Below the pieces are notes generated by a model, which was not told the DNA's origin, did no database searches, and was given only the letters and a program-made list of their open reading frames with translations. DNA of 64,000 nucleotides from Astropecten irregularis (lineage: Eukaryota > Echinodermata > Asteroidea > Paxillosida > Astropectinidae): the NCBI GenBank assembly GCA_963971285.1, contig OZ020258.1:8638614-8702613 (forward strand), in the 5' to 3' direction. The number at the start of each line of letters is the position of its first letter. The stretch's first letter is position 1. A program made the translations under genes and the position numbers. Positions 1 to 62,812 of this stretch are shown here, piece after piece.

Positions 1-241
1 TTCAGGGCCGAAAATCCAAGTATAGCACCATACGCTATGGGACAAAACGGCAGAGCACGCGGCAAAAAAAACCCTGCACTTAGACTATGAGACACTTTTT
101 TCTGTTAGAGTTTGAAATTTCTCCCTTAATACAGAGGCAATCGAGCTGAAACTTGCACGAAATGTAGCCCCAGATGTACTCTAAATGAAAGTATGAGCTG
201 TGCCAAATTCCAAAGTCATGTTCATGGCCGAAAATCCAAGT

Positions 242-257
242 ATAGCACCACACGCTA
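242..257 (+). repeat. Short hairpin in the monomer (example copy)
   Basis: The monomer contains ATAGC-ACCACAC-GCTAT, a 5-bp inverted repeat with a 7-nt loop. In the common linker it also contains GCAGT-CGGCAGAAAA-ACTGC (5-bp arms, 10-nt loop). Both recur in most copies. The stems are short, so folding relevance is uncertain. Exceptions such as CGCTTCGCG at about 46,393 break the arm. Confidence 0.5.
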
Positions 258-649
258 TGCGACAAAACGGCAGAGCAGGCGGCAAAAAAACTGTACTTAG
301 ACTATGAGACACTTGTTTCTGCTAGAGTTTGAAATTTCTCCCTCAATACTTAGGCAATCGAGCTGAAACTTGCACGAAATGTAGCCCCAGATGTACTCTA
401 AATGACAGTATGAGCTGTGCCAAATTCCAAAGTCATGTTCATGGCCGAAAATCCAAGTATAGCACCACACGCTATGCAACAAAACGGCACTGCAGGCGGC
501 AAAAAAAACCCTGCACTTAGACTATGAGACACTTTTTTCTGTTAGAGTTTGAAATTTCTCCCTTAATACAGAGGCAATCGAGCTGAAACTTGCACGAAAT
601 GTAGCCCCAGATGTACTCTAAATGAAAGTATGAGCTGTGCCAAATTCCA

Positions 650-1585
650 AAGTCATGTTCATGGCCGAAAATCCAAGTATAGCACCACACGCTATGCGAC
701 AAACGGCAGAGCAGGCGGCAAAAAAACTGCGCTTAGACTAGGAGACACTTTTTTCTGCTAGAGTTTCAAATTTCACACTCAATACTGAGGCAATCGAGCT
801 GAAACTTGCACGAAATGTAGCCCCAGATGTACTCTACAGGAAAGTATGAGCTGTGCCAAATTCCAAAGTCATGTTCATGGCCGAAAATCCAAGTATAGTA
901 CCACACGCTATGCGACAAACGGCAGAGCAGGCGGCAAAAAAACTGCGCTTAGACTAGTAGACACTTTTTTCTGATAGAGTTTGAAATTTCTCCCTCAATA
1001 CAGAGGCAATCGAGCTGAAACTTGCACGAAATGTAGCCCCAGATGTACTCTAAATAAAAGTATGAGCTGTGCAAAATTCCAAAGTCATGTTCATGGCCGA
1101 AAATCCAAGTTTAGCACCACACGCTATGCGACAAAACGGCAGAGCAGTCGGCAGAAAAACTGCACTTAGACTATGAGACACTTGTTTCTGCTAGAGTTTG
1201 AAATTTCTCCCTCAATACTTAGGCAATCAAGCTTAAACTTGCACGAAATGTAGCCCCAGATGTACTCTAAATGAAAGTATGAGCTGTGCCAAATTCCAAA
1301 GTCATGTTCATGGCCGAAAATCCAAGTATAGCACCACACGCTATGCGACAAAACGGCAGAGCAGGCGGCAAAAAAACTGCACTTAGACTATGAGACACTT
1401 GTTTCTGCTAGAGTTTGAAATTTCTCCCTCAATACTTAGGCAATCGAGCTGAAACTTGCACGAAATGTAGCCCCAGATGTACTCTAAATGACAGTATGAG
1501 CTGTGCCAAATTCCAAAGTCATGTTCATGGCCGAAAATCCAAGTATAGCACCACACGCTATGCAACAAAACGGCAGAGCACGCGG
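650..1585 (+). repeat. HOR block, copy 1 of a 3,263-bp (15-monomer) displacement
   Basis: This segment recurs almost base for base 3,263 bp downstream (about 3,913-4,848). Both copies share the CAAATTTCACACTC monomer, AGTATAGTACCACACGC, AGACTAGTAGACAC, TCTAAATAAAAG, AAGTTTAGCACC and CAATCAAGCTTAAAC. Flanks diverge at GAGCTGTGCC versus GAGCAGTTCT on the left and at the linker on the right. A single-base difference is TAGCCCCAG versus TAGCCCTAG. Confidence 0.85.
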
Positions 1586-1589
1586 CAAA

Positions 1590-3299
1590 AAAAACCCTGC
1601 ACTTAGACTATGAGACACTTTTTTCTGCTAGAGTTTGAAATTTCTCCCTCAATACTTAGGCAATCGAGCTGAAACTTGCACGAAATGTAGCCCCAGATGT
1701 ACTCTAAATGACAGCATGAGCTGTGCCAAATTCCAAAGTCATGTTCATGGCCGAAAATCCAAGTATAGCACCACACGCTATGCAACAAAACGGCAGAGCA
1801 CGCGGCAAAAAAAACCCTGCACTTAGACTATGAGACACTTTTTTCTGTTAGAGTTTGAAATTTCTCCCTTAATACAGAGGCAATCGAGCTGAAACTTGCA
1901 CGAAATGTAGCCCCAGATGTACTCTAAATGAAAGTATGAGCTGTGCCAAATTCCAATGTCATGTTCATGGCCGAAAATCCAAGTATAGCACCACACGCTA
2001 TGCGACAAACGGCAGAGCAGGCGGCAAAAAAACTGCGCTTAGACTAGGAGACACTTTTTTCTGCTAGAGTTTCAAATTTCACACTCAATACTGAGGCAAT
2101 CGAGCTGAAACTTGCACGAAATGTAGCCCCAGATGTACTCTACAGGAAAGTATGAGCAGTGCCAAATTCCAAAGTCATGTTCAGGGCCGAAAATCCAAGT
2201 ATAGCACCACACGCAATGGGAGAAAACGGCAGAGCACGCGGCAAAAAAACTGCGCTTAGACTAGGAGACACTTTTTTTTGCTAGAGTTTGAAATTTCTCC
2301 CTTAATACAGAGGCAATCGAGCTGAAACTTGCACGAAATGTAGCCCCAGATGTACTCTAAATGAAAGTATGAGCTGTGCCAAATTCCAAAGTCATGTTCA
2401 TGGCCGAAAATCCAAGTATAGCACCACACGCTATGCAACAAAACGGCAGAGCAGGCGGCAAAAAAACTGTACTTAGACTATGAGACACTTTTTTCTGCTA
2501 GAGTTTGAAATTTCTCCCTCAATACTTAGGCAATCGAGCTGAAACTTGCACGAAATGTAGCCCCAGATGTACTCTAAATGACAGCATGAGCTGTGCCAAA
2601 TTCCAAAGTCATGTTCATGGCCGAAAATCCAAGTATAGCACCACACGCTATGCAACAAAACGGCAGAGCACGCGGCAAAAAAAACCCTGCACTTAGACTA
2701 TGAGACACTTTTTTCTGTTAGAGTTTGAAATTTCTCCCTTAATACAGAGGCAATCGAGCTGAAACTTGCACGAAATGTAGCCCCAGATGTACTCTAAATG
2801 AAAGTATGAGCTGTGCCAAATTCCAATGTCATGTTCATGGCCGAAAATCCAAGTATAGCACCACACGCTATGCGACAAACGGCAGAGCAGGCGGCAAAAA
2901 AACTGCGCTTAGACTAGGAGACACTTTTTTCTGCTAGAGTTTCAAATTTCACACTCAATACTGAGGCAATCGAGCTGAAACTTGCACGAAATGTAGCCCC
3001 AGATGTACTCTACAGGAAAGTATGAGCAGTGCCAAATTCCAAAGTCATGTTCAGGGCCGAAAATCCAAGTATAGCACCACACGCAATGGGAGAAAACGGC
3101 AGAGCACGCGGCAAAAAAACTGCGCTTAGACTAGGAGACACTTTTTTTTGCTAGAGTTTGAAATTTCTCCCTTAATACAGAGGCAATCGAGCTGAAACTT
3201 GCACGAAATGTAGCCCCAGATGTACTCTAAATGAAAGTATGAGCTGTGCCAAATTCCAAAGTCATGTTCATGGCCGAAAATCCAAGTATAGCACCACAC
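1590..3299 (+). repeat. Tandem 4-monomer (870 bp) HOR, two copies
   Basis: About 1,590-2,429 matches about 2,460-3,299 at an offset of 870 bp. Shared private variants are TCTAAATGACAGCATG, TTCCAATGTCATG, the CAAATTTCACACTC monomer, ACACGCAATGGGAGAAAACG and CTTTTTTTTGCTAGAG. The first differences at the right end are GCTATGCAACAAAAC versus GCTATGCGACAAAAC and then CTTTTTTC versus CTTGTTTC. This is a recent tandem duplication by register shift of four monomers. Confidence 0.88.
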
Positions 3300-3912
3300 G
3301 CTATGCGACAAAACGGCAGAGCAGGCGGCAAAAAAACTGTACTTAGACTATGAGACACTTGTTTCTGCTAGAGTTTGAAATTTCTCCCTCAATACTTAGG
3401 CAATCGAGCTGAAACTTGCACGAAATGTAGCCCCAGATGTACTCTAAATGACAGTATGAGCTGTGCCAAATTCCAAAGTCATGTTCATGGCCGAAAATCC
3501 AAGTATAGCACCACACGCTATGCAACAAAACGGCAGAGCAGGCGGCAAAAAAAACCCTGCACTTAGACTATGAGACACTTTTTTCTGTTAGAGTTTGACA
3601 TTTCTCCCTTAATACAGAGGCAATCGAGCTGAAACTTGCACGAAATGTAGCCCCAGATGTACTCTAAATGAAAGTATGAGCTGTGCCAAATTCCAAAGTC
3701 ATGTTCATGGCCGAAAATCCAAGTATAGCACCACACGCTATGCGACAAAACGGCAGAGCAGTCGGCAGAAAAACTGCACTTAGACTATGAGACACTTTTT
3801 TCTGCTAGAGTTTGAAATTTCTCCCTCAATACTTAGGCAATCGAGCTGAAACTTCCACAAAATGTAGCCCCAGATGTACTCTACAGGAAAGTATGAGCAG
3901 TTCTAAATTCCA

Positions 3913-4848: not shown

Positions 4849-7739
4849 CAGAAAAACTGCGCTTAGACTAGGAGACACTTTTTTCTGCTAGAGTTTCAAA
4901 TTTCACACTCAATACTGAGGCAATCGAGCTGAAACTTGCACGAAATGTAGCCCCAGATGTACTCTACAGGAAAGTATGAGCTGTGCCAAATTCCAAAGTC
5001 ATGTTCATGGCCGAAAATCCAAGTATAGTACCACACGCTATGCGACAAACGGCAGAGCAGGCGGCAAAAAAACTGCGCTTAGACTAGTAGACACTTTTTT
5101 CTGCTAGAGTTTGAAATTTCTCCCTCAATACTGAGGCAATCGAGCTGAAACTTGCACGAAATGTAGCCCCAGATGTACTGTACAGAAGAGTATGAGCAGT
5201 GCCAAATTCCAAAGTCATGTTCATGGCCGAAAATCCAAGTATAGCACCACACGCTATGCGACAAAACGGCAGAGCACGCGGCAAAAAAAACCCTGCACTT
5301 AGACTATGACACACTTTTTTCTGTTAGAGTTTGAAATTTCTCCCTCAATACAGAGGCAATCGAGCTTAAACTTGCACGAAATGTAGCCCCAGATGTACTC
5401 TACAGGAAAGTATGAGCTGTGCCAAATTCCAAACTCATGTTCATGGCCGAAAATCCAAGTATAGCACCACACGCTATGCGACAAAACGGCAGAGCAGTCG
5501 GCAGAAAAACTGCACTTAGACTATGAGACACTTTTTTCTGCTAGAGTTTGAAATTTCTCCCTCAATACTTAGGCAATCGAGCTGAAACTTCCACAAAATG
5601 TAGCCCCAGATGTACTCTACAGGAAAGTATTAGCAGTGCTAAATTCCAAAGTCATGTTCATGGCCGAAGATTCAAGTATAGCACCACACGCTATGCAACA
5701 AACGGCAGAGCAGGCGGCAAACAAACTGCGCTTAGACTAGGAGACACTTTTTTCTGCTAGAGTTTGAAATTTCTCCCTCAATACTGAGGCAATCGAGCTG
5801 AAACTTGCACGAAATGTAGCCCCAGATGTACTCTACAGGAAAGTATGAGCAGTGCCAAATTCCAAAGTCATGTTCATGGCCGAAAATCCAAGTATAGCAC
5901 CACACGCTATGCGACAAAACGGCAGAGCACGCGGCAAAAAAACCCTTGCACTTAGACTATGAGACACTTTTTTCTGTTAGAGTTTGAAATATCTCCCTCA
6001 ATACAGAGGCAATCGAGCTGAAACTTGCACGAAATGTAGCCCCAGATGTACTCTACAGGAAAGTATGAGCAGTGCCAAATTCCAAAGTCAGGTTCATGGC
6101 CGAAAATCCAAGTATAGCACCACACGCTATGCGACAAAACGGCAGAGCACGCGGCAAAAAAAGAACCTGCACTTAGACTATGACACACTTTTTTCTGTTA
6201 AAGTTTGAAATTTTTCCCTCAATACAGAGGCAATCGAGCTGAAACTTGCACGAAATGTAGCCCCAGATGTTCTCTACAGGAAAGTATGAGCTCTGCCAAA
6301 TTCCAAAGTCATGTTCATGGCCGAAAATCCAAGTATAGCACCACACGCTATGCGACAAAACGGCAGAGCACGCGGCAAAAAAAACCCTGCACTTAGACTA
6401 TGAGACACTTTTTTCTGTTAGAGTTTGAAATTTCTCCCTCAATACTTAGGCAATCGAGCTGAAACTTGCACGAAATGTAGCCCCAGATGTACTCTACAGG
6501 AAAGTATGAGCAGTGCTAAATTCCAAAGTCATGTTCATGGCCGAAAATCCAAGTATAGCACCACACGCTATGCGACAAAACGGCAGAGCACGCGGCAAAA
6601 AAAAAACCTGCACTTAGACTATGAGACACTTTTTTCTGTTAGAGTTTGAAATTTCTCCCTCAATACTTAGGCAATCGAGCTGAAACTTGCACGAAATGTA
6701 GCCCCAGATGTACTCTACAGGAAAGTATGAGCAGTGCCAAATTCCAAAGTCATGTTCATGGCCGAAAATCCAAGTATAGCACCACACGCTATGCGACAAA
6801 ACGGCAGAGCACGCGGCAAAAAAAAACCTGCACTTAGACTATGAGACACTTTTTTCTGTTAGAGTTTGAAATTTCTCCCTCAATACTTAGGCAATCGAGC
6901 TGAAACTTGCACGAAATGTAGCCCCAGATGTACTCTACAGGAAAGTATGAGCAGTGCCAAATTCCAAAGTCATGTTCATGGCCGAAAATCCAAGTATAGC
7001 ACCACACGCTATGCAACAAACGGCAGAGCAGGCGGCAAACAAACTGCGCTTAGACTAGGAGACACTTTTTTCTGCTAGAGTTTGAAATTTCTCCCTCAAT
7101 ACTGAGGCAATCGAGCTGAAACTTGCACGAAATGTAGCCCCAGATGTACTCTACAGGAAAGTATGAGCAGTGCCAAATTCCAAAGTCATGTTCATGGCCG
7201 AAAATCCAAGTATAGCACCACACGCTATGCGACAAAACGGCAGAGCACGCGGCAAAAAAAAAACCTGCACTTAGACTATGACACACTTTTTTCTGTTAAA
7301 GTTTGAAATTTCTCCCTCAATACAGAGGCAATCGAGCTGAAACTTGCACGAAATGTAGCCCCAGATGTTCTCTACAGGAAAGTATGAGCTCTGCCAAATT
7401 CCAAAGTCATGTTCATGGCCGAAAATCCAAGTATAGCACCACACGCTATGCGACAAAACGGCAGAGCAGTCGGCAGAAAAACTGCACTTAGACTATGAGA
7501 CACTTTTTTCTGCTAGAGTTTGAAATTTCTCCCTCAATACTTAGGCAATCGAGCTGAAACTTCCACAAAATGTAGCCCCAGATGTACTCTACAGGAAAGT
7601 ATGAGCAGTGCCAAATTCCAAAGTCATGTTCATGGCCGAAAATCCAAGTATAGCACCACACGCTATGCGACAAAACGGCAGAGCACGCGGCAAAAAAAAA
7701 CCTGCACTTAGACTATGACACACTTTTTTCTGTTAGAGT

Positions 7740-10700
7740 TTGAAATTTCTCCCTCAATACTTAGGCAATCGAGCTGAAACTTGCACGAAATGTAGCCCCG
7801 GATGTACTCTACAGGAAAGTAAGAGCAGTGCTAAATTCCAAAGTCATGTTCATGGCCGAAAATCCAAGTATAGCACCACACGCTATGCAACAAACGGCAG
7901 AGCAGGCGGCAGAACAAACTGCGCTTAGACTAGGAGACACTTTTTTCTGCTAGAGTTTGAAATTTCTCCCTCAATACTGAGGCAATCGAGCTGAAACTTG
8001 CACGAAATGTAGCCCCAGATGTACTCTACAGGAAAGTATGAGCAGTGCCAAATTCCAAAGTCATGTTCATGGCCGAAAATCCAAGTATAGCACCACACGC
8101 TATGCGACAAAACGGCAGAGCACGCGGCAAAAAAACCCCTGCACTTAGACTATGAGACACTTTTTTCTGTTAGAGTTTGAAATATCTCCCTCAATACAGA
8201 GGCAATCGAGCTGAAACTTGCACGAAATGTAGCCCCAGATGTACTCTACAGGAAAGTATGAGCAGTGCCAAATTCCAAAGTCATGTTCATGGCCGAAAAT
8301 CCAAGTATAGCACCACACGCTATGCGACAAAACGGCAGAGCACGCGGCAAAAAAACCCCTGCACTTAGACTATGAGACACTTTTTTCTGTTAGAGTTTGA
8401 AATATCTCCCTCAATACAGAGGCAATCGAGCTGAAACTTGCACGAAATGTAGCCCCAGATGTACTCTACAGGAAAGTATGAGCAGTGCCAAATTCCAAAG
8501 TCATGTTCATGGCCGAAAATCCAAGTATAGCACCACACGCTATGCGACAAAACGGCAGAGCAGTCGGCAGAAAAACTGCACTTAGACTATGAGACACTTT
8601 TTTCTGTTAGAGTTTGAAATTTCTCCCTCAATACTTAGGCAATCGAGCTGAAACTTGCACGAAATGTAGGCCCAGATGTACTCTACAGAAGAGTATGAGC
8701 AGTGCCAAATTCCAAAGTCATGTTCATGGCCGAAAATCCAAGTATAGCACCACACGCTATGCGACAAAACGGCAGAGCACGCGGCAAAAAAAAACCCTGC
8801 ACTTAGACTATGAGACACTTTTTTCTGTTAGAGTTTGAAATTTCTCCCTCAATACTTAGGCAATCGAGCTAAAACTTGCACGAAATGTAGGCCCAGATGT
8901 ACTCTACAGAAGAGTATGAGCAGTGCCAAATTCCAAAGTCATGTTCATGGCCGAAAATCCAAGTATAGCACCACACGCTATGCAACAAACGGCAGAGCAG
9001 GCGGCAAACAAACTGCGCTTAGACTAGGAGACACTTTTTTCTGCTAGAGTTTGAAATTTCTCCCTCAATACTGAGGCAATCGAGCTGAAACTTGCACGAA
9101 ATGTAGCCCCAGATGTACTCTACAGGAAAGTATGAGCAGTGCCAAATTCCAAAGTCATGTTCATGGCCGAAAATCCAAGTATAGCACCACACGCTATGCG
9201 ACAAAACGGCAGAGCACGCGGCAAAAAAAAAACCTGCACTTAGACTATGACACACTTTTTTCTGTTAAAGTTTGAAATTTCTCCCTCAATACAGAGGCAA
9301 TCGAGCTGAAACTTGCAAGAAATGTAGCCCCAGATGTTCTCTACAGGAAAGTATGAGCTCTGCCAAATTCCAAAGTCATGTTCATGGCCGAAAATCCAAG
9401 TATAGCACCACACGCTATGCGACAAAACGGCAGAGCAGTCGGCAGAAAAACTGCACTTAGACTATGAGACACTTTTTTCTGCTAGAGTTTGAAATTTCTC
9501 CCTCAATACTTAGGCAATCGAGCTGAAACTTCCACAAAATGTAGCCCCAGATGTACTCTACAGGAAAGTATGAGCAGTGCCAAATTCCAAAGTCATGTTC
9601 ATGGCCGAAAATCCAAGTATAGCACCACACGCTATGCGACAAAACGGCAGAGCACGCGGCAAAAAAAACCCTGCACTTAGACTATGACACACTTTTTTCT
9701 GTTAAAGTTTGAAATTTCTCCCTCAATATAGAGGCAATCGAGCTGAAACTTCCACAAAATGTAGCCCCAGATGTACTCTACAGGAAAGTATGAGCAGTAC
9801 CAAATTCCAAAGTCATGTTCATGGCCGAAAATCCAAGTATAGCACCACACGCTATGCGACAAAACGGCAGAGCAGTCGGCAGAAAAACTGCACTTAGACT
9901 ATGAGACACTTTTTTCTGTTAGAGTTTGAAATTTCTCCCTCAATACTTAGGCAATCGAGCTGAAACTTGCACGAAATGTAGGCCCAGATGTACTCTACAG
10001 AAGAGTATGAGCAGTGCCAAATTCCAAAGTCATGTTCATGGCCGAAAATCCAAGTATAGCACCACACGCTATGCGACAAAACGGCAGAGCACGCGGCAAA
10101 AAAAAACCTGCACTTAGACTATGAGACACTTTTTTCTGTTAGAGTTTGAAATTTCTCCCTCAATACTTAGGCAATCGAGCTGAAACTTGCACGAAATGTA
10201 GCCCCAGATGTACTCTACAGGAAAGTATGAGCAGTGCTAAATTCCAAAGTCATGTTCATGGCCGAAAATCCAAGTATAGCACCACACGCTATGCAACAAA
10301 CGGCAGAGCAGGCGGCAAACAAACTGCGCTTAGACTAGGAGACACTTTTTTCTGCTAGAGTTTGAAATTTCTCCCTCAATACTGAGGCAATCGAGCTGAA
10401 ACTTGCACGAAATGTAGCCCCAGATGTACTCTACAGGAAAGTATGAGCAGTGCCAAATTCCAAAGTCATGTTCATGGCCGAAAATCCAAGTATAGCACCA
10501 CACGCTATGCGACAAAACGGCAGAGCACGCGGCAAAAAAAAAACCTGCACTTAGACTATGACACACTTTTTTCTGTTAAAGTTTGAAATTTCTCCCTCAA
10601 TACAGAGGCAATCGAGCTGAAACTTGCACGAAATGTAGCCCCAGATGTTCTCTACAGGAAAGTATGAGCTCTGCCAAATTCCAAAGTCATGTTCATGGCC

Positions 10701-12960
10701 GAAAATCCAAGTATAGCACCACACGCTATGCGACAAAACGGCAGAGCACGCGGCAAAAAAAACCCTGCACTTAGACTATGACACACTTTTTTCTGTTAGA
10801 GCTTGAAATTTCTCCCTCAATACTTAGGCAATCGAGCTGAAACTTCCACAAAATGTAGCCCCAGATGTACTCTACAGGAAAGTATGAGCAGTGCCAAATT
10901 CCAAAGTCATGTTCATGGCCGAAAATCCAAGTATAGCACCACACGCTATGCGACAAAACGGCAGAGCACGCGGCAAAAAAAAACCTGCACTTAGACTATG
11001 ACACACTTTTTTCTGTTAGAGTTTGAAATTTCTCCCTCAATACTTAGGCAATCGAGCTGAAACTTGCACGAAATGTAGCCCCAGATGTACTCTACAGGAA
11101 AGTATGAGCAGTGCTAAATTCCAAAGTCATGTTCATGGCCGAAAATCCAAGTATAGCACCACACGCTATGCAACAAACGGCAGAGCAGGCGGCAAACAAA
11201 CTGCGCTTAGACTAGGAGACACTTTTTTCTGCTAGAGTTTGAAATTTCTCCCTCAATACTGAGGCAATCGAGCTGAAACTTGCACGAAATGTAGCCCCAG
11301 ATGTACTCTACAGGAAAGTATGAGCAGTGCCAAATTCCAAAGTCATGTTCATGGCCGAAAATCCAAGTATAGCACCACACGCTATGCGACAAAACGGCAG
11401 AGCACGCGGCAAAAAAACCCCTGCACTTAGACTATGAGACACTTTTTTCTGTTAGAGTTTGAAATATCTCCCTCAATACAGAGGCAATCGAGCTGAAACT
11501 TGCACGAAATGTAGCCCCAGATGTACTCTACAGGAAAGTATGAGCAGTGCCAAATTCCAAAGTCATGTTCATGGCCGAAAATCCAAGTATAGCACCACAC
11601 GCTATGCGACAAAACGGCAGAGCACGCGGCAAAAAAACCCCTGCACTTAGACTATGAGACACTTTTTTCTGTTAGAGTTTGAAATATCTCCCTCAATACA
11701 GAGGCAATCGAGCTGAAACTTGCACGAAATGTAGCCCCAGATGTACTCTACAGGAAAGTATGAGCAGTGCCAAATTCCAAAGTCATGTTCATGGCCGAAA
11801 ATCCAAGTATAGCACCACACGCTATGCGACAAAACGGCAGAGCAGTCGGCAGAAAAACTGCACTTAGACTATGAGACACTTTTTTCTGTTAGAGTTTGAA
11901 ATTTCTCCCTCAATACTTGGGCAATCGAGCTGAAACTTGCACGAAATGTAGGCCCAGATGTACTCTACAGAAGAGTATGAGCAGTGCCAAATTCCAAAGT
12001 CATGTTCATGGCCGAAAATCCAAGTATAGCACCACACGCTATGCGACAAAACGGCAGAGCACGCGGCAAAAAAAAACCTGCACTTAGACTATGAGACACT
12101 TTTTTCTGTTAGAGTTTGAAATTTCTCCCCCAATACTTAGGCAATCGAGCTGAAACTTGCACGAAATGTAGGCCCAGATGTACTCTACAGAAGAGTATGA
12201 GCAGTGCCAAATTCCAAAGTCATGTTCATGGCCGAAAATCCAAGTATAGCACCACACGCTATGCAACAAACGGCAGAGCAGGCGGCAAACAAACTGCGCT
12301 TAGACTAGGAGACACTTTTTTCTGCTAGAGTTTGAAATTTCTCCCTCAATACTGAGGCAATCGAGCTGAAACTTGCACGAAATGTAGCCCCAGATGTACT
12401 CTACAGGAAAGTATGAGCAGTGCCAAATTCCAAAGTCATGTTCATGGCCGAAAATCCAAGTATAGCACCACACGCTATGCGACAAAACGGCAGAGCACGC
12501 GGCAAAAAAAAAACCTGCACTTAGAATATGACACACTTTTTTCTGTTAAAGTTTGAAATTTCTCCCTCAATACAGAGGCAATCGAGCTGAAACTTGCACG
12601 AAATGTAGCCCCAGATGTTCTCTACAGGAAAGTATGAGCTCTGCCAAATTCCAAAGTCATGTTCATGGCCGAAAATCCAAGTATAGCACCACACGCTATG
12701 CGACAAAACGGCAGAGCAGTCGGCAGAAAAACTGCACTTAGACTATGAGACACTTTTTTCTGCTAGAGTTTGAAATTTCTCCCTCAATACTTAGGCAATC
12801 GAGCTGAAACTTCCACAAAATGTAGCCCCAGATGTACTCTACAGGAAAGTATGAGCAGTGCCAAATTCCAAAGTCATGTTCATGGCCGAAAATCCAAGTA
12901 TAGCACCACACGCTATGCGACAAAACGGCAGAGCACGCGGCAAAAAAAAACCTGCACTTA
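7740..12960 (+). repeat. 3,282-bp (15-monomer) HOR pair: about 7.74-9.68 and 11.02-12.96 kb
   Basis: Monomers starting near 7,740, 7,925, 8,145, 8,365, 8,582, 8,835, 9,019, 9,240 and 9,457 each have a closest counterpart 3,281-3,283 bp downstream, in the same order, with the same linker type and diagnostic variants. Between them, shorter relationships occur: a 6-monomer shift (9,019 to 10,330) and 9-monomer shifts (7,050 to 9,019; 10,330 to 12,300). The block is therefore a mosaic of nested duplications. Confidence 0.8.
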
Positions 12961-29397: not shown

Positions 29398-29457
29398 TAG
29401 ACTATGAGACACTTTTTTCTGTTAGAGTTTGAAATTTCTCCCAAAAAACTGCGCTTA
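29398..29457 (+). repeat. Truncated satellite monomer, second copy
   Basis: Same internal deletion as at 26,940-27,000 and 2,457 bp from it. The joint carries one more C and fewer A residues. Confidence 0.9.
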
Positions 29458-41644: not shown

Positions 41645-41651
41645 CCTGCAC

Positions 41652-45188: not shown

Positions 45189-48100
45189 GGCAATCGAGCT
45201 GAAACTTGCACGAAATGTAGCCCCAGATGTACTCTACAGGAAAGTATGAGCAGTGCCAAATTCCAAAGTCATGTTCATGGCCGAAAATCCAAGTATAGCA
45301 CCACACGCTATGCGACAAAACGGCAGAGCAGTCGGCAGAAAAACTGCACTTAGACTATGAGACACTTTTTTCTGCTAGAGTTTGAAATTTCTCCCTCAAT
45401 ACTTAGGCAATCGAGCTGAAACTTCCACAACATGTAGCCCCAGATGTACTCTACAGGAAAGTATGAGCAGTGCCAAATTCCAAAGTCATGTTCATGGCCG
45501 AAAATCCAAGTATAGCACCACACGCTATGCGACAAACGGCAGAGCAGGCGGCAAAAAAACTGCGCTTAGACTAGGAGACACTTTTTTCTGCTAGAGTTTG
45601 AAATTTCTCCCTCAATACAGAGGAAATCGAGCTGAAACATGCACGAAATGTGGCCCCAGATGTACTCTACAGGAAAGTATGAGCAGTGCCAAATTCCAAA
45701 GTCATGTTCATGGTCGAAAATCCAAGTATAGCACCACACGCTATGCAACAAACGGCAGAGCAGGCGGCAAAAAAACTGCGCTTAGACTAGGAGACACTTT
45801 TTTCTGCTAGAGTTTGAAATTTCTCCCTCAATACTGAGGCAATCGAGCTGAAACTTCCACAAAATGTAGCCCCAGATGTACTCTACAGGAAAGTATGAGC
45901 TCTGCCAAATTCCAAAGTCATGTTCATGGCCGAAAATCCAAGTATAGCACCACACGCTATGCGACAAAACGGCAGAGCAGTCGGCAGAAAAACTGCACTT
46001 AGACTATGAGACACTTTTTTCTGCTAGAGTTTGAAATTTCTCCCTCAATACTTAGGCAATCGAGCTGAAACTTGCACAAAATGTAGCCCCAGATGTACTC
46101 TACAGGAAAGTATGAGCAGTGCCAAATTCCAAAGTCATGTTCATGGCCGAAAATCCAAGTATAGCACCACACGCTATGCGACAAAACGGCAGAGCACGCG
46201 GCAAAAAAAACCCTGCACTTAGACTATGAGACACTTTTTTCTGTTAGAGTTTGAAATTTCTCCCTCAATACAGAGGCAATCGAGCTGAAACTTGCATGAA
46301 ATGTAGCCCCAGATGTTCTCTACAGGAAAGTATGAGCTGTGCCAAATTCCAAAGTCATGTTCATGGCCGAAAATCCAAGTATAGCACCACACGCTTCGCG
46401 ACAAAACGGCAGAGCACGCGGCAAAAAAAACCCTGCACTTAGACTATGAGACACTTTTTTCTGTTAGAGTTTGAAATTTCTCCCTCAATACAGAGGCAAT
46501 CGAGCTGAAACTTGCACGAAATGTATCCCCAGATGTACTCTACAGGAAAGTATGAGCTCTGCCAAATTCCAAAGTCATGTTCATGGTCGAAAATCCAAGT
46601 ATAGCACCACACGCTATGCGACAAAACGGCAGAGCAGTCGGCAGAAAAACTGCACTTAGACTAGGAGACACTTTTTTCTGCTAGAGTTTGAAATTTCTCC
46701 CTCAATACTTAGGCAATCGAGCTGAAACTTCCACAAAATGTAGCCCCAGATGTACTCTACAGGAAAGTATGAGCAGTGCCAAATTCCAAAGTCATGTTCA
46801 TGGCCGAAAATCCAAGTATAGCACCACACGCTATGCGACAAAACGGCAGAGCACGCGGCAAAAAAAACCCTGCACTTAGACTATGAGACACTTTTTCTGT
46901 TAGAGTTTGAAATTTCTCCCTCAATACTTAGGCAATCGAGCTGAAACTTGCACGAAATGTAGCCCCAGATGTACTCTACAGGAAAGTATGAGCAGTGCCA
47001 AATTCCAAAGTCATGTTCATGGCCGAAAATCCAAGTATAGCACCACACGCTATGCGACAAAACGGCAGAGCAGTCGGCAGAAAAACTGCACTTAGACTAT
47101 GAGACACTTTTTTCTGCTAGAGTTTGAAATTTCTCCCTCAATACTTAGGCAATCGAGCTGAAACTTCCACAACATGTAGCCCCAGATGTACTCTACAGGA
47201 AAGTATGAGCAGTGCCAAATTCCAAAGTCATGTTCATGGCCGAAAATCCAAGTATAGCACCACACGCTATGCGACAAACGGCAGAGCAGGCGGCAAAAAA
47301 ACTGCGCTTAGACTAGGAGACACTTTTTTCTGCTAGAGTTTGAAATTTCTCCCTCAATACAGAGGAAATCGAGCTGAAACATGCACGAAATGTGGCCCCA
47401 GATGTACTCTACAGGAAAGTATGAGCAGTGCCAAATTCCAAAGTCATGTTCATGGTCGAAAATCCAAGTATAGCACCACACGCTATGCAACAAACGGCAG
47501 AGCAGGCGGCAAAAAAACTGCGCTTAGACTAGGAGACACTTTTTTCTGCTAGAGTTTGAAATTTCTCCCTCAATACTGAGGCAATCGAGCTGAAACTTCC
47601 ACAAAATGTAGCCCCAGATGTACTCTACAGGAAAGTATGAGCTCTGCCAAATTCCAAAGTCATGTTCATGGCCGAAAATCCAAGTATAGCACCACACGCT
47701 ATGCGACAAAACGGCAGAGCAGTCGGCAGAAAAACTGCACTTAGACTATGAGACACTTTTTTCTGCTAGAGTTTGAAATTTCTCCCTCAATACTTAGGCA
47801 ATCGAGCTGAAACTTGCACAAAATGTAGCCCCAGATGTACTCTACAGGAAAGTATGAGCAGTGCCAAATTCCAAAGTCATGTTCATGGCCGAAAATCCAA
47901 GTATAGCACCACACGCTATGCGACAAAACGGCAGAGCACGCGGCAAAAAAAACCCTGCACTTAGACTATGAGACACTTTTTTCTGTTAGAGTTTGAAATT
48001 TCTCCCTCAATACAGAGGCAATCGAGCTGAAACTTGCATGAAATGTAGCCCCAGATGTTCTCTACAGGAAAGTATGAGCTGTGCCAAATTCCAAAGTCAT

Positions 48101-48266
48101 GTTCATGGCCGAAAATCCAAGTATAGCACCACACGCTTCGCGACAAAACGGCAGAGCACGCGGCAAAAAAAACCCTGCACTTAGACTATGAGACACTTTT
48201 TTCTGTTAGAGTTTGAAATTTCTCCCTCAATACAGAGGCAATCGAGCTGAAACTTGCACGAAATGT
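45189..48266 (+). repeat. 1,742-bp (8-monomer) HOR, two copies
   Basis: About 45,189-46,524 matches 46,931-48,266 at an offset of 1,742 bp. Shared markers are CTTCCACAACATG, GAAACATGCACG with AATGTGGCCCC, AAACTTGCATGAAATG and the unusual CACACGCTTCGCGAC. The left boundary is ATACAGAGG versus ATACTTAGG. The right boundary is the AATGTATCCCC versus AATGTAGCCCC change. Confidence 0.85.
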
Positions 48267-49389
48267 AGCCCCAGATGTTCTCTACAGGAAAGTATGAGCT
48301 GTGCCAAATTCCAAAGTCATGTTCATGGCCGAAAATCCAAGTATAGCACCACACGCTTTGCGACAAAACGGCAGAGCAGTCGGCAGAAAAACTGCACTTA
48401 GACTATGAGACACTTTTTTCTGCTAGAGTTTGAAATTTCTCCCTCAATACTAAAGCAATCGAGCTGAAACTTCCACAAAATGTAGCCCCAGATGTACTCT
48501 ACAGGAAAGTATGAGCAGTGCCAAATTCCAAAGTCATGTTCATGGCCGAAAATCCAAGTATAGCACCACACGCTATGCGACAAAACGGCAGAGCAGTCGG
48601 AAGAAAAACTGCACTTAGACTATGAGACACTTTTTTCTGCTAGAGTTTGAAATTTCTCCCTCAATACTTAGGCAATCGAGCTGAAACTTCCACAAAATGT
48701 AGCCCCAGATGTACTCTACAGGAAAGTATGAGCAGTGCCAAATTCCAAAGTCATGTTCATGGCCGAAAATCCAAGTATAGCACCACACGCTTTGCGACAA
48801 AACGGCAGAGCAGTCGGCAGAAAAACTGCACTTAGACTATGAGACACTTTTTTCTGCTAGAGTTTGAAATTTCTCCCTCAATACTTAGGCAATCGAGCTG
48901 AAACTTCCACAAAATGTAGCCCCAGATGTACTCTACAGGAAAGTATGAGCAGTGCCAAATTCCAAAGTCATGTTCATGGCCGAAAATCCAAGTATAGCAC
49001 CACACGCTATGCGACAAACGGCAGAGCAGGCGGCAAAAAAACTGCGCTTAGACTAGGAGACACTTTTTTTCTGCTAGAGTTTGAAATTTCTCCCTCAATA
49101 CAGGGGAAATCGAGCTGAAACATGCACGAAATGTGGCCCCAGATGTACTCTACAGGAAAGTATGAGCAGTGCCAAATTCCAAAGTCATGTTCATGGTCGA
49201 AAATCCAAGTATAGCACCACACGCTATGCAACAAACGGCAGAGCAGGCGGCAAAAAAACTGCGCTTAGACTAGGAGACACTTTTTTCTGCTAGAGTTTGA
49301 AATTTCTCCCTCAATACAGAGGAAATCGAGCTGAAACATGCACGAAATGTGGCCCCAGATGTACTCTACAGGAAAGTATGAGCTGTGCC

Positions 49390-51265
49390 AAATTCCAAAG
49401 TCATGTTCATGGCCGAAAAAAACAAGTATAGCACCACACGCTATGCGACAAAACGGCAGAGCAGTCGGCAGAAAAACTGCACTTAGACTATGAGACACTT
49501 TTTTCTGCTAGAGTTTGAAATTTCTCCCTCAATACTTAGGCAATCGAGCTGAAACTTCCACAACATGTAGCCCCAGATGTACTCTACAGGAAAGTATGAG
49601 CAGTGCCAAATTCCAAAGTCATGTTCATGGCCGAAAATCCAAGTATAGCACCACACGCTATGCGACAAACGGCAGAGCAGGCGGCAAAAAAACTGCGCTT
49701 AGACTAGGAGACACTTTTTTCTGCTAGAGTTTGAAATTTCTCCCTCAATACAGAGGAAATCGAGCTGAAACATGCACGAAATGTGGCCCCAGATGTACTC
49801 TACAGGAAAGTATGAGCAGTGCCAAATTCCAAAGTCATGTTCATGGTCGAAAATCCAAGTATAGCACCACACGCTATGCAACAAACGGCAGAGCAGGCGG
49901 CAAAAAAACTGCGCTTAGACTAGGAGACACTTTTTTCTGCTAGAGTTTGAAATTTCTCCCTCAATACAGAGGAAATCGAGCTGAAACATGCACGAAATGT
50001 GGCCCCAGATGTACTCTACAGGAAAGTATGAGCTGTGCCAAATTCCAAAGTCATGTTCATGGCCGAAAATCCAAGTATAGCACCACACGCTTTGCGACAA
50101 AACGGCAGAGCAGTCGGCAGAAAAACTGCACTTAGACTATGAGACACTTTTTTCTGCTAGAGTTTGAAATTTCTCCCTCAATATTAAGGCAATCGAGCTG
50201 AAACTTCCACAAAATGTAGCCCCAGATGTACTCTACAGGAAAGTATGAGCAGTGCCAAATTCCAAAGTCATGTTCATGGCCGAAAATCCAAGTATAGCAC
50301 CACACGCTATGCGACAAAACGGCAGAGCAGTCGGAAGAAAAACTGCACTTAGACTATGAGACACTTTTTTCTGCTAGAGTTTGAAATTTCTCCCTCAATA
50401 CTTAGGCAATCGAGCTGAAACTTCCACAAAATGTAGCCCCAGATGTACTCTACAGGAAACTATGAGCAGTGCCAAATTCCAAAGTCATGTTCATGGCCGA
50501 AAAAAACAAGTATAGCACCACACGCTATGCGACAAAACGGCAGAGCAGTCGGCAGAAGAACTGCACTTAGACTATGAGACACTTTTTTCTGCTAGAGTTT
50601 GAAATTTCTCCCTCAATACTTAGGCAATCGAGCTGAAACTTCCACAACATGTAGCCCCAGATGTACTCTACAGGAAAGTATGAGCAGTGCCAAATTCCAA
50701 AGTCATGTTCATGGCCGAAAATCCAAGTATAGCACCACACGCTATGCGACAAACGGCAGAGCAGGCGGCAAAAAAACTGCGCTTAGACTAGGAGACACTT
50801 TTTTCTGCTAGAGTTTGAAATTTCTCCCTCAATACAGAGGAAATCGAGCTGAAACATGCACGAAATGTGGCCCCAGATGTACTCTACAGGAAAGTATGAG
50901 CAGTGCCAAATTCCAAAGTCATGTTCATGGTCGAAAATCCAAGTATAGCACCACACGCTATGCAACAAACGGCAGAGCAGGCGGCAAAAAAACTGCGCTT
51001 AGACTAGGAGACACTTTTTTCTGCTAGAGTTTGAAATTTCTCCCTCAATACAGAGGAAATCGAGCTGAAACATGCACGAAATGTGGCCCCAGATGTACTC
51101 TACAGGAAAGTATGAGCTGTGCCAAATTCCAAAGTCATGTTCATGGCCGAAAATCCAAGTATAGCACCACACGCTTTGCGACAAAACGGCAGAGCAGTCG
51201 GCAGAAAAACTGCACTTAGACTATGAGACACTTTTTTCTGCTAGAGTTTGAAATTTCTCCCTCAA
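49390..51265 (+). repeat. 1,084-bp (5-monomer) HOR, two copies
   Basis: Monomers at 49,483, 49,699, 49,915 and 50,132 recur at 50,567, 50,783, 50,999 and 51,216. Each set is preceded by the GAAAAAAACAAGTATAGC monomer (about 49,415 and 50,499). The order is the CTTCCACAACATG unit, two CATGCACGAAATGTGG units, then the CACACGCTTTGCGAC junction. A third occurrence of the leading pair lies at about 52,234-52,550. Confidence 0.82.
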
Positions 51266-51872
51266 TACTAAGGCAATCGAGCTGAAACTTCCACAAAATG
51301 TAGCCCCAGATGTACTCTACAGGAAAGTATGAGCAGTGCCAAATTCCAAAGTCATGTTCATGGCCGAAAATCCAAGTATAGCACCACACGCTATGCGACA
51401 AAACGGCAGAGCAGTCGGAAGAAAAACTGCACTTAGACTATGAGACACTTTTTTCTGCTAGAGTTTGAAATTTCTCCCTCAATACTTAGGCAATCGAGCT
51501 GAAACTTCCACAAAATGTAGCCCCAGATGTACTCTACAGGAAAGTATGAGCAGTGCCAAATTCCAAAGTCATGTTCATGGCCGAAAATCCAAGTATAGCA
51601 CCACACGCTTTGCGACAAAACGGCAGAGCAGTCGGCAGAAAAACTGCACTTAGACTATGAGACACTTTTTTCTGCTAGAGTTTGAAATTTCTCCCTCAAT
51701 ACTTAGGCAATCGAGCTGAAACTTCCACAAAATGTAGCCCCAGATGTACTCTACAGGAAAGTATGAGCAGTGCCAAATTCCAAAGTCATGTTCATGGCCG
51801 AAAATCCAAGTATAGCACCACACGCTATGCCACAAAACGGCAGAGCAGTCGGAAGAAAAACTGCACTTAGAC

Positions 51873-51900
51873 TATGAAACACTTTATTGTGGTAAAGTTT
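51873..51900 (+). repeat. Edge-type variant monomer start, second interior copy
   Basis: Same ACTTTATTGTGGTAAAG variant as at 15.8 kb. It is also preceded by TATGCCACAAAACGG and GTCGGAAGAAAAAC, so the whole local haplotype is shared between two sites 36 kb apart. Confidence 0.8.
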
Positions 51901-53819
51901 GAAATTTCTCCCTCAATACTGAGGAAATCGAGCTGAAACTTGCACGAAATGTATCCCCAGATGTACTCTACAGGAAAGTATGAGCTCTGCCAAATTCCAA
52001 AGTCATGTTCATGGCCGAAAATCCAAGTATAGCACCACACGCTATGCGACAAAACGGCAGAGCAGTCGGCAGAAAAACTGCAGTTAGACTATGAGACACT
52101 TTTTTCTGCTAGAGTTTGAAATTTCTCCCTCAATACTTAGGCAATCGAGCTGAAACTTCCACAAAATGTAGCCCCAGATGTACTCTACAGGAAAGTATGA
52201 GCAGTGCCAAATTCCAAAGTCATGTTCATGGCCGAAAAAAACAAGTATAGCACCACACGCTATGCGACAAAACGGCAGAGCAGTCGGCAGAAAAACTGCA
52301 CTTAGACTATGAGACACTTTTTTCTGCTAGAGTTTGAAATTTCTCCCTCAATACTTAGGCAATCGAGCTGAAACTTCCACAACATGTAGCCCCAGATGTA
52401 CTCTACAGGAAAGTATGAGCAGTGCCAAATTCCAAAGTCATGTTCATGGCCGAAAATCCAAGTATAGCACCACACGCTATGCGACAAACGGCAGAGCAGG
52501 CGGCAGAAAAACTGCGCTTAGACTAGGAGACACTTTTTTCTGCTAGAGTTTGAAATTTCTCCCTCAATACTGAGGCAATCGAGCTGAAACTTCCACAAAA
52601 TGTAGCCCCAGATGTACTCTACAGGAAAGTATGAGCAGTGCCGAATTCCAAAGTCATGTTCATGGCCGAAAATCCAAGTATAGCACCAAACGCTATGCGA
52701 CAAAACGGCAGAGCATGCGGCAAAAAAAACTGCACTTAGACTATGAGACACTTTTTTCTGCTAGAGTTTGAAATTTCTCCCTCAATACTTAGGCAATCGA
52801 GCTGAAACTTCCACAAAATGTAGCCCCAGATGTACTCTACAGGAAAGTATGAGCAGTGCCAAATTCCAAAGTCATGTTCATGGCCGAAAATCCAAGTATA
52901 GCACCACACGCTTTGCGACAAAACGGCAGAGCAGTCGGCAGAAAAACTGCACTTAGACTATGAGACACTTTTTTCTGCTAGAGTTTGAAATTTCTCCCTC
53001 AATACTTAGGAAATCGAGCTGAAACTTGCACGAAATGTATCCCCAGATGTACTCTACAGGAAAGTATGAGCTCTGCCAAATTCCAAAGTCATGTTCATGG
53101 CCGAAAATCCAAGTATAGCACCACACGCTATGCGACAAAACGGCAGAGCACGCGGCAAAAAAAACCCTGCACTTAGACTATGAGACACTTTTTCTGTTAG
53201 AGTTTGAAATTTCTCCCTCAATACTTAGGCAATCGAGCTGAAACTTGCACGAAATGTAGCCCCAGATGTACTCTACAGGAAAGTATGAGCAGTGCCAAAT
53301 TCCAAAGTCATGTTCATGGCCGAAAATCCAAGTATATCACCACACGCTATGCGACAAACGGCAGAGCAGTCGGCAAAAAAACTGCGCTTAGACTAGGAGA
53401 CACTTTTTTCTGCTAGAGTTTGAAATTTCTCCCTCAATACAGAGGAAATCGAGCTGAAACATGCACGAAATGTGGCCCCAGATGTACTCTACAGGAAAGT
53501 ATGAGCAGTGCCAAATTCCAAAGTCATGTTCATGGTCGAAAATCCAAGTATAGCACCACACGCTATGCAACAAACGGCAGAGCAGGCGGCAAAAAAACTG
53601 CGCTTAGACTAGGAGACACTTTTTTCTGCTAGAGTTTGAAATTTCTCCCTCAATACTGAGGCAATCGAGCTGAAACTTCCACAAAATGTAGCCCCAGATG
53701 TACTCTACAGGAAAGTATGAGCAGTGCCGAATTCCCAAGTCATGTTCATGGCCGAAAATCCAAGTATAGCACCAAACGCTATGCGACAAAACGGCAGAGC
53801 ATGCGGCAAAAAAAACTGC

Positions 53820-56280
53820 ACTTAGACTATGAGACACTTTTTTCTGCTAGAGTTTGAAATTTCTCCCTCGATACTGAGGCAATCGTGCTGAAACTTGCAC
53901 GAAATGTAGCCCCAGATGTACTCTACAGGAAAGTATGAGCTGTGCCAAATTCCAAAGTCATGTTCATGGCCGAAAATCCAAGTATAGCACCACACGCTAT
54001 GCGACAAAACGGCAGAGCACGCGGCAAAAAAAAACTGCACTTAGACTATGAGAAACTTTTTTCTGCTAGAGTTTGAAATTTCTTCCTCAATACTGAGGCA
54101 ATCGAGCTGAAACTTGCACGAAATGTAGCCCCAGATGTACTCTACAGGAAAGTATGAGCTCTGCCAAATTCCAAAGTCATGTTCATGGCCGAAAATCCAA
54201 GTATAGCACCACACGCTATGCGACAAAACGGCAGAGCACGCGGCAAAAAAAAACTGCACTTAGACTATGAGACACTTTTTTCTGCTAGAGTTTGAAATTT
54301 CTCCCTCGATACTGAGGCAATCGTGCTGAAACTTGCACGAAATGTAGCCCCAGATGTACTCTACAGGGAAGTATGAGCTGTGCCAAATTACAAAGTCATG
54401 TTCATTGCCGAAAATCCAAGTATAGCACCACACGCTATGCCACAAAACGGCAGAGCACGCGGCAAAAAAAAACTGCAATTAGACTATGAGAAACTTTTTT
54501 CTGCTAGAGTTTGAAATTTCTCCCTCGATACTGAGGCAATCGTCCTGAAACTTGCACGAAATGTAGTCCCAGATGTACTCTACAGGGAAGTATGAGCTGT
54601 GCCAAATTCCAAAGTCATGTTCATGGCCGAAAATCCAAGTATAGCACCACACGCTATGCCACAAAACGACAGAGCACGCGGCAAAAAAAAACTGCACTAA
54701 GACTATGAGACACTTTTTTTCGGCTACAGTTTGAAATTTCTCCCTCAATACTGAGGCAATCGTGCTGAAACTTGCATGAAATGTAGCCCCAGATATACTT
54801 TACAGGAAAGTATGAGCTCTGCCAAATTCCAAAGTCATCTTCATGGCGGAAAATCCATTTATAGCACCACACGCTATGCGACAAAACGGCAGAGCACCAG
54901 GCAAAAAAAAATGCACTAAGACTATGAGACACTTTTTTCTGCTAGAGTTTGAAATTTCTCCCTCGATACTGAGGCAATCGAGCTGAAACTTGCATGAAAT
55001 GTAGCCCCAGATGTACTCTACAGGAAAGTATGAGCTGTGTCAAATTCCAAAGTCATGTTCATGGCCGAAAATCCAAGTATACCACCACACGCTATGCGAC
55101 AAAACGGCAGAGCAGTCGGCAGAAAAACTGCACTTAGACTATGAAACACTTTATTGTGGTAGAGTTTTAAATTTCTCCCTCAATACAGAGGAAATCGAGC
55201 TGAAACTTGCACGAAATGTATCCCCAGATGTACTCTACAGGAAAGTATGAGCTCTGCAAATTCCAAAGTCATGTTCATGGCCGAAAATCCAAGTATAGCA
55301 CCACACGCTATGCGACAAAACGGCAGAGCATGCGGCAAAAAAAACTGCACTTAGACTATGAGACACTTTTTTCTGCTAGAGTTTGAAATTTCTCCCTCGA
55401 TACTGAGGCAATCGTGCTGAAACTTGCACGAAATGTAGCCCCAGATGTACTCTACAGGGAAGTATGAGCTGTGCCAAATTCCAAAGTCATGTTCATGGCC
55501 GAAAATCCAAGTATAGCACCACACGCTATGCCACAAAACGACAGAGCACGCGGCAAAAAAAAACTGCACTAAGACTATGAGACACTTTTTTCTGCTACAG
55601 TTTGAACTTTCTCCCTCAATACTGAGGCAATCGTGCTGAAACTTGCATGAAATGTAGCCCCAGATATACTCTACAGGAAAGTATGAGCTCTGCTAAATTC
55701 CAAAGTCATGTTCATGGCGGAAAATCCATTTATAGCACCACACGCTATGCGACAAAACGGCAGAGCACCAGGCAAAAAAAAATGCACTAAGACTATGAGA
55801 CACTTTTTTCTGCTAGAGTTTGAAATTTCTCCCTCGATACTGAGGCAATCGAGCTGAAACTTGCATGAAATGTAGCCCCAGATGTACTCTACAGGAAAGT
55901 ATGAGCTGTGTCAAATTCCAAGGTCATGTTCATGGCCGAAAATCCAAGTATACCACCCCACGCTATGCGACAAAACGGCAGTGCAGTCGGCAGAAAAACT
56001 GCACTTGGACTATGAGACACTTTTTTCTGCTAGAGTTTGAAATTTCTCCCTCAATACAGAGGAAATCGAGCTGAAACTTGCACGAAATGTAGCCCCACAT
56101 GTACTCTACAGAAAAGTATGAGCTCTGCCAAATTCCAAAGTCATGTTCATGGCTGAAAATCTGAACTATAGCACCACACGCTATGCGACAAAACGGCAGA
56201 GCAGTCGGAAGAAAAACTGCACTTAGACCATGAAACACTTTATTGTGGTAGAGTATATCACCACAGGCTACACGCACCAC
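53820..56280 (+). repeat. Satellite domain E, diverging array edge
   Basis: Monomers become progressively irregular toward the right boundary. CTCCCTCGATACTGAGG with CAATCGTGCTGAAAC is common. Private changes accumulate, such as GGAAAATCCATTTATAGC (54.85 and 55.73 kb), GAGAAACTT and CCAGGCAAAAAAAAATGC. Near 56,230-56,290 a monomer stops after about 50 bp, with unrelated sequence ATATCACCACAGGCTACACG before the next copy. Loss of homogeneity at an array edge is the pattern expected when unequal exchange acts mainly in the interior. Confidence 0.88.
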
Positions 56281-58716: not shown

Positions 58717-58719
58717 CAG

Positions 58720-62810: not shown

Positions 62811-62812
62811 TA

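What the first reader, a model, noticed from the sequence alone, without database searches (positions are those of the whole stretch)
1..56280. A 56-kb satellite array with mosaic higher-order structure
The array has no single higher-order period. Blocks repeat at 437, 660, 869-870, 1,084, 1,311, 1,727, 1,742, 1,969, 2,457, 2,623-2,626 and 3,263-3,282 bp, in different domains. This resembles the layered HOR evolution known for primate alpha satellite, in what is probably a marine invertebrate. The monomer sequence is not one I recognise.
Basis: partly seen in the sequence, partly recalled or inferred. Interest (0 to 1): 0.7.

Follow-up and report, generated by a model that had tools for sequence, protein, structure and literature searches.

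The report
Starfish satellite array, irregularly block-duplicated
A starfish chromosome carries in its middle a very long run of one short repeated DNA unit that has been copied over and over in blocks of varying size; it is probably the chromosome's centromere, of a generally known type.

Summary
Block order exceeds chance: 94 block pairs against a mean of 15 in 50 shuffles. Contig lengths identify the genome as Astropecten irregularis (sand star); the window lies in chromosome 15. SatA spans about 988 kb mid-chromosome (both ends read, interior sampled). An unrelated 197-bp satellite (SatB) lies beside it. SatA was also hit on five other chromosome-size contigs; one SatA 34-mer has 20,726 exact hits.

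It does not pass as a primate-type higher-order array: units are 93% alike, recent tandem runs have about 2 copies, the array has no CENP-B-box-like site, and samples show no central young layer. New point: variant sites inside one unit are nearly unlinked beyond 120 bp (window r2 0.18 to 0.02). So exchanges break inside units; simulation shows that one process can give both levels of mosaic, though not every setting fits. Centromere identity is likely but untested. A new satellite family of a known, Arabidopsis-like irregular kind.

The parts
1..56250 (+). SatA array: head-to-tail 217/220-bp units (258 anchor hits in the window), mean pairwise identity about 93%, one strand; part of a ~988-kb tract
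   Evidence: extent
1580..3756 (+). 870-bp (4-unit) tandem block, about 2.4 copies
6597..13138 (+). 3,280-3,282-bp (15-unit) related blocks
10803..22702 (+). largest regular domain: 2,623-2,626-bp (12-unit) period, about 4.5 periods with interruptions, shorter blocks nested in it; one unbroken 2-copy run 15,889-21,256
25388..30328 (+). 2,457-bp block pair; carries a unit with a 58-bp internal duplication (26,929-27,042; again 29,386-29,500 and, outside this pair, 32,060-32,174), a marker of block copying
35982..39458 (+). 1,727-bp (8-unit) two-copy block
40126..41655 (+). 660-bp (3-unit) tandem block
42588..44695 (+). 869-bp (4-unit) two-copy block with one 10-mismatch island (43,128-43,260)
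45144..48608 (+). 1,742-bp (8-unit) two-copy block; 1,338 bp of it identical
49319..51596 (+). 1,084-bp (5-unit) tandem pair
51800..56250 (+). right border of this SatA tract: more diverged units, only short weak block copies (e.g. 54,402 and 55,274, three units, 0.963-0.995)
56281..56554 (+). decayed relic SatA unit; no further SatA likeness found in the three right-hand stretches tested (56,561-57,100; 57,541-60,000; 60,701-64,000)

Best explanation
[quoted passage not shown] Shown: the array is on one strand where read, nucleosome-scale and about 1 Mb long, stands beside a second unrelated satellite (SatB), recurs at internal sites of several other chromosome-size contigs, and is a mosaic at two levels. 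Inferred mechanism: frequent small exchanges in register but shifted by whole units (unequal sister exchange, or break-induced replication restarting on a neighbouring unit) duplicate or delete runs of about 4-16 units. The break falls anywhere inside a unit, so each event also makes one chimeric unit. Repeated many times this gives many block sizes, mostly about two copies of each, similarity that fades over tens of kb, and units that are themselves recombinants. Inferred role: the array is the place where CENP-A chromatin and the kinetochore form; no particular block period is needed.
For: Array and block structure. Recent tandem duplications (blocks of >=4 units at >=98.5%) of 4, 12, 11 and 5 units in the window and 12, 8, 16, 5, 6, 8, 7, 10, 4, 7, 7, 6 and 5 units at the left end: no favoured size. 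Identical unit pairs: 3.1% at 1-3 kb, 0.3% at 25-50 kb, under 0.1% in every bin beyond 50 kb. Inside the unit, r2 between common variant sites falls from 0.212 (<10 bp) to 0.014 (>120 bp) over 1,085 units; in the window alone from 0.176 to 0.023, and with duplicate units removed from 0.179 to 0.018. Simulation with breaks anywhere (2,500 units, mean 12 units per event, 2 runs) gives r2 0.186 to 0.034 and a near-identity curve by lag close to that observed; with breaks only at unit borders r2 stays flat at 0.13-0.21. Position: tract 7.707-8.695 Mb of a 16.46-Mb chromosome. SatB at 7.662-7.704, 8.521-8.524 and 8.745-8.748 Mb. SatA hits on C8, C9, C15, C18, C19 and C22, in one internal region each as far as the truncated lists show. 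20,726 exact 34-mer hits, reversed-pattern control 0.
Against: No CENP-A, chromatin, Hi-C or FISH data were available; the centromere role rests on position, abundance and form. The place list starts at C8, so the exact 34-mer appears absent from C1 (chromosome 1). On C18 the listed SatB hits (6.62 Mb) and the one listed SatA hit (8.51 Mb) are 1.9 Mb apart, and on C19 a 600-bp point between SatB hits (7.20 Mb) is neither satellite. Similarity does not fade all the way: pairs 700-1,000 kb apart (the two ends) are >=98.5% alike in 1.25%, more than at 50-700 kb (0.46-1.05%). The interior is only sampled. The best-matching simulation has mean identity 0.82, not 0.93, and its parameters were chosen by hand. 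Other break-anywhere settings decayed less: r2 0.113 to 0.085 (mean 3 units) and 0.141 to 0.091 (mean 6) with too much near-identity; 0.146 to 0.077 (mean 8). Unit-border breaks plus short-tract conversion also lower r2 (0.093 to 0.063). PMC11062924 and PMC11579429 (passages) argue against simple unequal (meiotic) crossover as the general mechanism in humans and Arabidopsis.
Confidence: 0.66

Rival explanations
1. A primate-like higher-order-repeat centromere: a few multi-unit HORs amplified to many copies, in layers, youngest in the middle.
For: Blocks of several units at 98.5-100% identity exist; one domain shows about 4.5 interrupted periods of 2.62 kb; the window's last 4.5 kb is more diverged. 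A marked variant on C8 often recurs at 871/1,089-bp steps, so that array may be more regular.
Against: 17 recent tandem runs, 16 of about 1.8-2.3 copies and one of 3.0. Unit identity 93%, not 50-70%. CENP-B-box core: 0 in the array at <=1 mismatch. Share of units with a >=99% copy within about 5 kb: seven central samples 0.50-0.86, left end mean 0.58, window end mean 0.70, so no central peak.
Confidence: 0.1
2. The two-level mosaic is made chiefly by short-tract gene conversion between units, not by exchanges that duplicate or delete blocks.
For: 17 multi-mismatch islands flanked by >=250 bp identity on both sides, 6 of them with >=3 mismatches. Gene conversion at maize centromeres is reported (PMC2834710, start of abstract seen in the search listing). 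Border-only breaks plus conversion lower within-unit r2 in simulation.
Against: Single mismatches are commoner than islands (37 against 17). Of the 4 distinct islands with >=3 mismatches only 1 has both versions seen at least twice in the held SatA DNA. In-register whole-block copies are plain. The conversion simulation's r2 curve was nearly flat (0.093 to 0.063).
Confidence: 0.15
3. A heterochromatic (pericentromeric or knob-like) satellite with no kinetochore role; the true centromere lies in another sequence or is not sequence-marked.
For: The exact SatA 34-mer seems absent from chromosome 1; SatB is also on several chromosomes, so either could be the flank; a probable coding exon lies 4.3 kb from the relic unit at the border.
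Against: Mid-chromosome place on chromosome 15, hits on six chromosome-size contigs, very high copy number.
Confidence: 0.25
4. Assembly artefact: block structure produced by collapsed or mis-joined repeats.
For: A 200-N gap lies in the tract at 7,832,036-7,832,235; the assembly has 786 gaps and contig N50 0.9 Mb.
Against: The window has no N; the block copies of >=700 bp listed in the window are at most 2.7 kb, under the mean HiFi read of about 9.9 kb (22.66 Gb / 2.30 million reads); QV 56.8. The order of distant pieces of the tract is less sure.
Confidence: 0.04

Closest known systems
Arabidopsis thaliana CEN178 centromere arrays (TRASH paper PMC10199239 and review PMC11579429; passages of both seen)
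   Same: Nucleosome-scale unit, megabase-scale array, higher-order structure taken as pairs of duplicated blocks, homogenisation within arrays.
   Different: Unrelated organism; unit 217/220 bp. My block statistics come from 56- and 125-kb stretches and are not compared number by number with Arabidopsis. CENH3 occupancy is known there and unknown here.
Primate alpha satellite HOR arrays (PMC11062924, PMC8122249, PMC8997354; passages seen)
   Same: Tandem nucleosome-scale units, blocks of several units nearly identical, divergence at one border.
   Different: No dominating HOR in the stretches read, about 2 copies per recent block, units 93% alike, no CENP-B-box-like site in the array, no central young layer in the samples.
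SatB, the 197-bp satellite beside it on the same chromosome
   Same: Tandem, nucleosome-scale, on several chromosomes, same region.
   Different: No detectable sequence likeness to SatA (best local score 21; 60 of 300 shuffles do as well).

Membership tests
Primate-type alpha-satellite HOR array | One multi-unit HOR repeated many times in tandem | tested here: not met
   17 tandem runs in the window tract and 125 kb of the left end, 16 of 1.8-2.3 copies and one of 3.0; one domain of about 4.5 interrupted periods. Most of the tract's interior not read
Primate-type alpha-satellite HOR array | Units within a HOR much more diverged (about 50-70%) than HOR copies | tested here: not met
   mean unit identity 0.931 (left) and 0.934 (window tract); block copies 0.985-1.0
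Primate-type alpha-satellite HOR array | CENP-B box in part of the units | tested here: not met
   core pattern (recalled) with <=1 mismatch, 0 matches in the array, 1 in the flank, 4.25 expected by chance in the window
Primate-type alpha-satellite HOR array | Youngest, most uniform layer at the centre | tested here: inconclusive
   no central peak, but only seven 5-kb central samples
Primate-type alpha-satellite HOR array | Sequence relation to alpha satellite | not tested
   No repeat library held; Rfam gave no match at gathering scores in the window
Irregular (CEN178-like) satellite array | Multi-unit block duplications by the TRASH definition, above chance | tested here: met
   94 pairs against 15.1 (sd 4.3) in the window's 258 units; 350 against 39.4 (sd 9.0) in 573 units of the left end; 50 shuffles each
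Irregular (CEN178-like) satellite array | Chromosome-private variants | tested here: inconclusive
   2 of 2 C19 units have best matches of only 91.6 and 94.9% in the held C22 DNA; a variant found once in the held C22 DNA has 122 genomic copies, the 100 listed all on C8, 22 not listed
Centromeric satellite | Shared by the chromosomes, clustered at one internal site each | tested here: inconclusive
   Hits on C8, C9, C15, C18 (one hit), C19, C22; apparently absent from C1; other chromosomes unresolved because hit lists are truncated
Centromeric satellite | CENP-A chromatin / primary constriction | not testable with these tools
   No chromatin or cytological data

The most novel reading that the evidence does not exclude
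The starfish centromere has no unit of selection above tens of base pairs: its repeat units behave like a freely recombining population (variants within one 217-bp unit nearly unlinked beyond 120 bp), so any kinetochore specificity must lie in motifs shorter than the unit or in no sequence at all. Within-unit linkage decay would then be a quantitative clock for exchange in any centromere.
Probability: 0.3. Interest if true: 0.6.

Novelty: new member of a known kind. Interest (0 to 1): 0.42.

Why it matters
My searches of the open-access library showed no description of a starfish centromeric satellite: 'Astropecten' with 'satellite dna' gave 0 papers, and in the broader searches (212, 133, 544 and 471 papers, of which 15, 20, 12 and 10 were listed) no listed title is about one; the unlisted papers were not seen. 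If SatA is the centromere, an echinoderm shows the irregular, block-duplicating architecture known from Arabidopsis, which would suggest that it is the generic outcome of unequal exchange and the regular primate HOR a special case. The within-unit linkage curve is a cheap way to test exchange models in other centromeres.

Tried and rejected
Junction position within the unit: the histograms peak where variant sites cluster, so they reflect detectability; no conclusion drawn. Common origin of SatA and SatB: no support. Hairpin or dyad structure: one unit (26,987-27,203) folds no better than shuffles (z 0.42; 129 of 200 shuffles fold as well). Coding potential: the array's open frames repeat with the unit, whose length shifts the frame; not pursued. 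Flank exon: no Pfam family, only weak matches to designed armadillo-repeat proteins in the PDB (best E 0.0008 for the whole sequence, no single stretch significant); gene not named. Points near the middle of eight other chromosomes (801 bp each) held no SatA or SatB; later hits show that clusters need not be at midpoints, so this test was weak. Size search '475.7' found no paper; the chromosome-length search did. Rfam and tRNA scans of the window: nothing. The first SatA search showed only C22 and C37 because only 40 of 698 candidates were scored; my early idea that SatA is specific to chromosome 15 was wrong.
Full report
What is there. Window bases 1-56,250 are a head-to-tail array of one unit of 217 or 220 bp (SatA): TRF periods 217/220/437, 258 anchor hits, no N. 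Units are on average 93% alike. Order is not random: searches give shuffle controls. At 23 of 40 lags at least one of 200 shuffles reached the observed share; at one and two units the near-identical share (3.2% and 4.0%) is like the shuffles (3.8% and 3.7%).

Where it is. The genome tool places the window at contig C22:8,638,614-8,702,613 of a 475.7-Mb genome. Small differences remain: 475,729,200 against 475,837,774 bp, 168 contigs against 186 scaffolds, and some chromosomes shorter by about 0.01 Mb (e.g. 27.22 against 27.23). The piece of C168 read has long open frames under the echinoderm mitochondrial code that look like NADH dehydrogenase genes (names by eye).

The tract. SatA begins at C22:7,706,906 and this tract ends in the window at about 8,694,870, some 988 kb. 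I read 7.66-7.85 Mb and the window, and sampled 5 kb at 7.94, 8.04, 8.14, 8.24, 8.34, 8.44 and 8.54 Mb and just left of the window; all eight samples are SatA on the same strand (anchor counts). A 200-N gap lies at 7,832,036-7,832,235. On the left stands a 197-bp satellite, SatB, from 7,661,604 to 7,704,359, with no detectable likeness to SatA and 2.5 kb of other DNA between. SatB also occurs at 8.521-8.524 Mb, between SatA samples, and at 8.745-8.748 Mb, right of the window. SatA recurs at 8.830-8.832 Mb (two 34-mer variant hits). So the window's non-satellite right end appears to be an island in a satellite-rich region of at least 1.17 Mb around the middle of the chromosome.

Elsewhere in the genome. 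A 34-mer of SatA has 20,726 exact matches, with 0 for the reversed control. It is exact in 466 of 1,085 held C22 units, so the genome may hold about 48,000 units or 10 Mb, an extrapolation. SatA hits lie on C8/chromosome 2 (21.506-21.753 Mb listed), C9/chromosome 3 (11.625-12.073), C15 (14.179-14.193), C18/chromosome 11 (8.515, one hit), C19/chromosome 12 (6.986-7.034, SatB on both sides) and on C26, C37, C53, C89 and C121. Listings are in contig order and cut off; that starts at C8, so chromosome 1 seems to lack the exact 34-mer. Listed SatB hits lie on C12, C18, C19 and C22 (only 14 of 779 candidates scored). A C19 point at 7.20 Mb and points on C18 at 6.612 and 6.640 Mb hold neither satellite.

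Structure. Block copies of at least 700 bp cover 63% of the window array and 93% of 125 kb at the left end. Seventeen tandem-type runs (4 in the window tract of 280 units, 13 in the left tract of 573 units; blocks of at least 4 units at >=98.5%) involve 4 to 16 units and 1.8 to 3.0 copies. The longest distant copy is 27 units, 99.97% alike, 48.7 kb apart. Identical unit pairs peak at 1-3 kb (3.1%) and are under 0.1% beyond 50 kb, but near-identical pairs (>=98.5%) rise again between the tract's two ends (1.25% at 700-1,000 kb), which I cannot explain. Homogeneity shows no central peak.

Inside the unit. Among 23 common substitution sites in 1,085 units, mean r2 falls from 0.212 under 10 bp to 0.014 beyond 120 bp, with shuffled columns at 0.001. 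The window alone (28 sites) gives 0.176 to 0.023; its 175 distinct units give 0.179 to 0.018. The fall is not quite smooth: 80-120 bp lies slightly above 50-80 bp in the pooled set. A first version with alignment-gap sites gave a similar shape. Units are thus chimeras of a few variant segments.

Mechanism. A neutral model of in-register tandem duplication and deletion was simulated. With breaks anywhere, 2,500 units, mean 12 units per event and one mutation per event (2 runs), r2 by distance is 0.186, 0.128, 0.065, 0.048, 0.040, 0.034 (observed 0.212, 0.112, 0.064, 0.033, 0.042, 0.014). The near-identical share by unit lag is 0.0125, 0.071, 0.079, 0.073, 0.052, 0.035, 0.018, 0.007 (observed, in roughly matching distance bins, 0.022, 0.054, 0.084, 0.072, 0.047, 0.031, 0.015, 0.009). 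Breaks only at unit borders, without conversion, give no decay (between 0.13 and 0.27 throughout). Not all break-anywhere settings fit: mean identity in the best run is 0.82 against 0.93; with 1,000 units and means of 3 or 6 units the decay is weak (0.113 to 0.085; 0.141 to 0.091), while mean 12 decays strongly (0.32 to 0.03) but is too uniform. Parameters were chosen by hand, so this shows sufficiency, not an estimate. Unequal sister exchange and break-induced replication (both in PMC8997354, passages) would look alike here. [quoted passage not shown] Gene conversion leaves few clear traces.

Function. Mid-chromosome position, copy number, recurrence at internal sites of several chromosome-size contigs and a flanking second satellite make a centromere the likeliest role; nothing here measures it. 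Reasons for doubt are given under evidence against.

Known or new. By the features tested it is not a primate-type HOR array, and it works like the irregular CEN178 kind. I found no earlier description of it among listed titles (open-access library only).

Noticed in passing
56,720-58,420: About 1-kb segment present twice in tandem by eye (shared text near 56,730-57,100 and 57,717-58,110), each copy ending in an array of a 16-bp minisatellite (57,104-57,544 and 58,104-58,414).
   Followed up: no
60,810-60,943: Probable last coding exon of a host gene by eye (AG acceptor, open to a stop, acidic tail), 4.3 kb from the relic SatA unit; no Pfam family.
   Followed up: partly
60,314-60,746 and 63,133-63,257: GTAGTTCCCCC-type C-rich minisatellite and a 53-bp tandem repeat.
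   Followed up: no
L014:6,470-6,906 (C22:7,706,470-7,706,906): Perfect 109-bp inverted repeat with a tRNA-Thr-like sequence (6,765-6,837) whose right arm ends where TRF starts the SatA tract; may be a tRNA-derived mobile element at the border.
   Followed up: partly
C22 left end against window: The two ends of the tract, 0.7-1.0 Mb apart, share near-identical units more often (1.25% of pairs >=98.5%) than pairs 400-700 kb apart (0.46%); scaffold order or an older duplication could explain it.
   Followed up: no
C8:21.65-21.75 Mb: A SatA variant found once in the held chromosome 15 DNA has 122 genomic copies, the 100 listed all on chromosome 2, often at 871- and 1,089-bp steps: a local amplification, perhaps more regular than here.
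   Followed up: partly
C1 (chromosome 1): No exact SatA 34-mer appears to be on the largest chromosome, judging by listing order; an 801-bp piece at C1:19.5 Mb, near its middle, is a GATGCCTC-type minisatellite for most of its length, by eye.
   Followed up: no
L010 (C22:7,661,604-7,670,000): The outer end of SatB also shows a 391-bp dimer period, so SatB too may have some higher-order structure.
   Followed up: no
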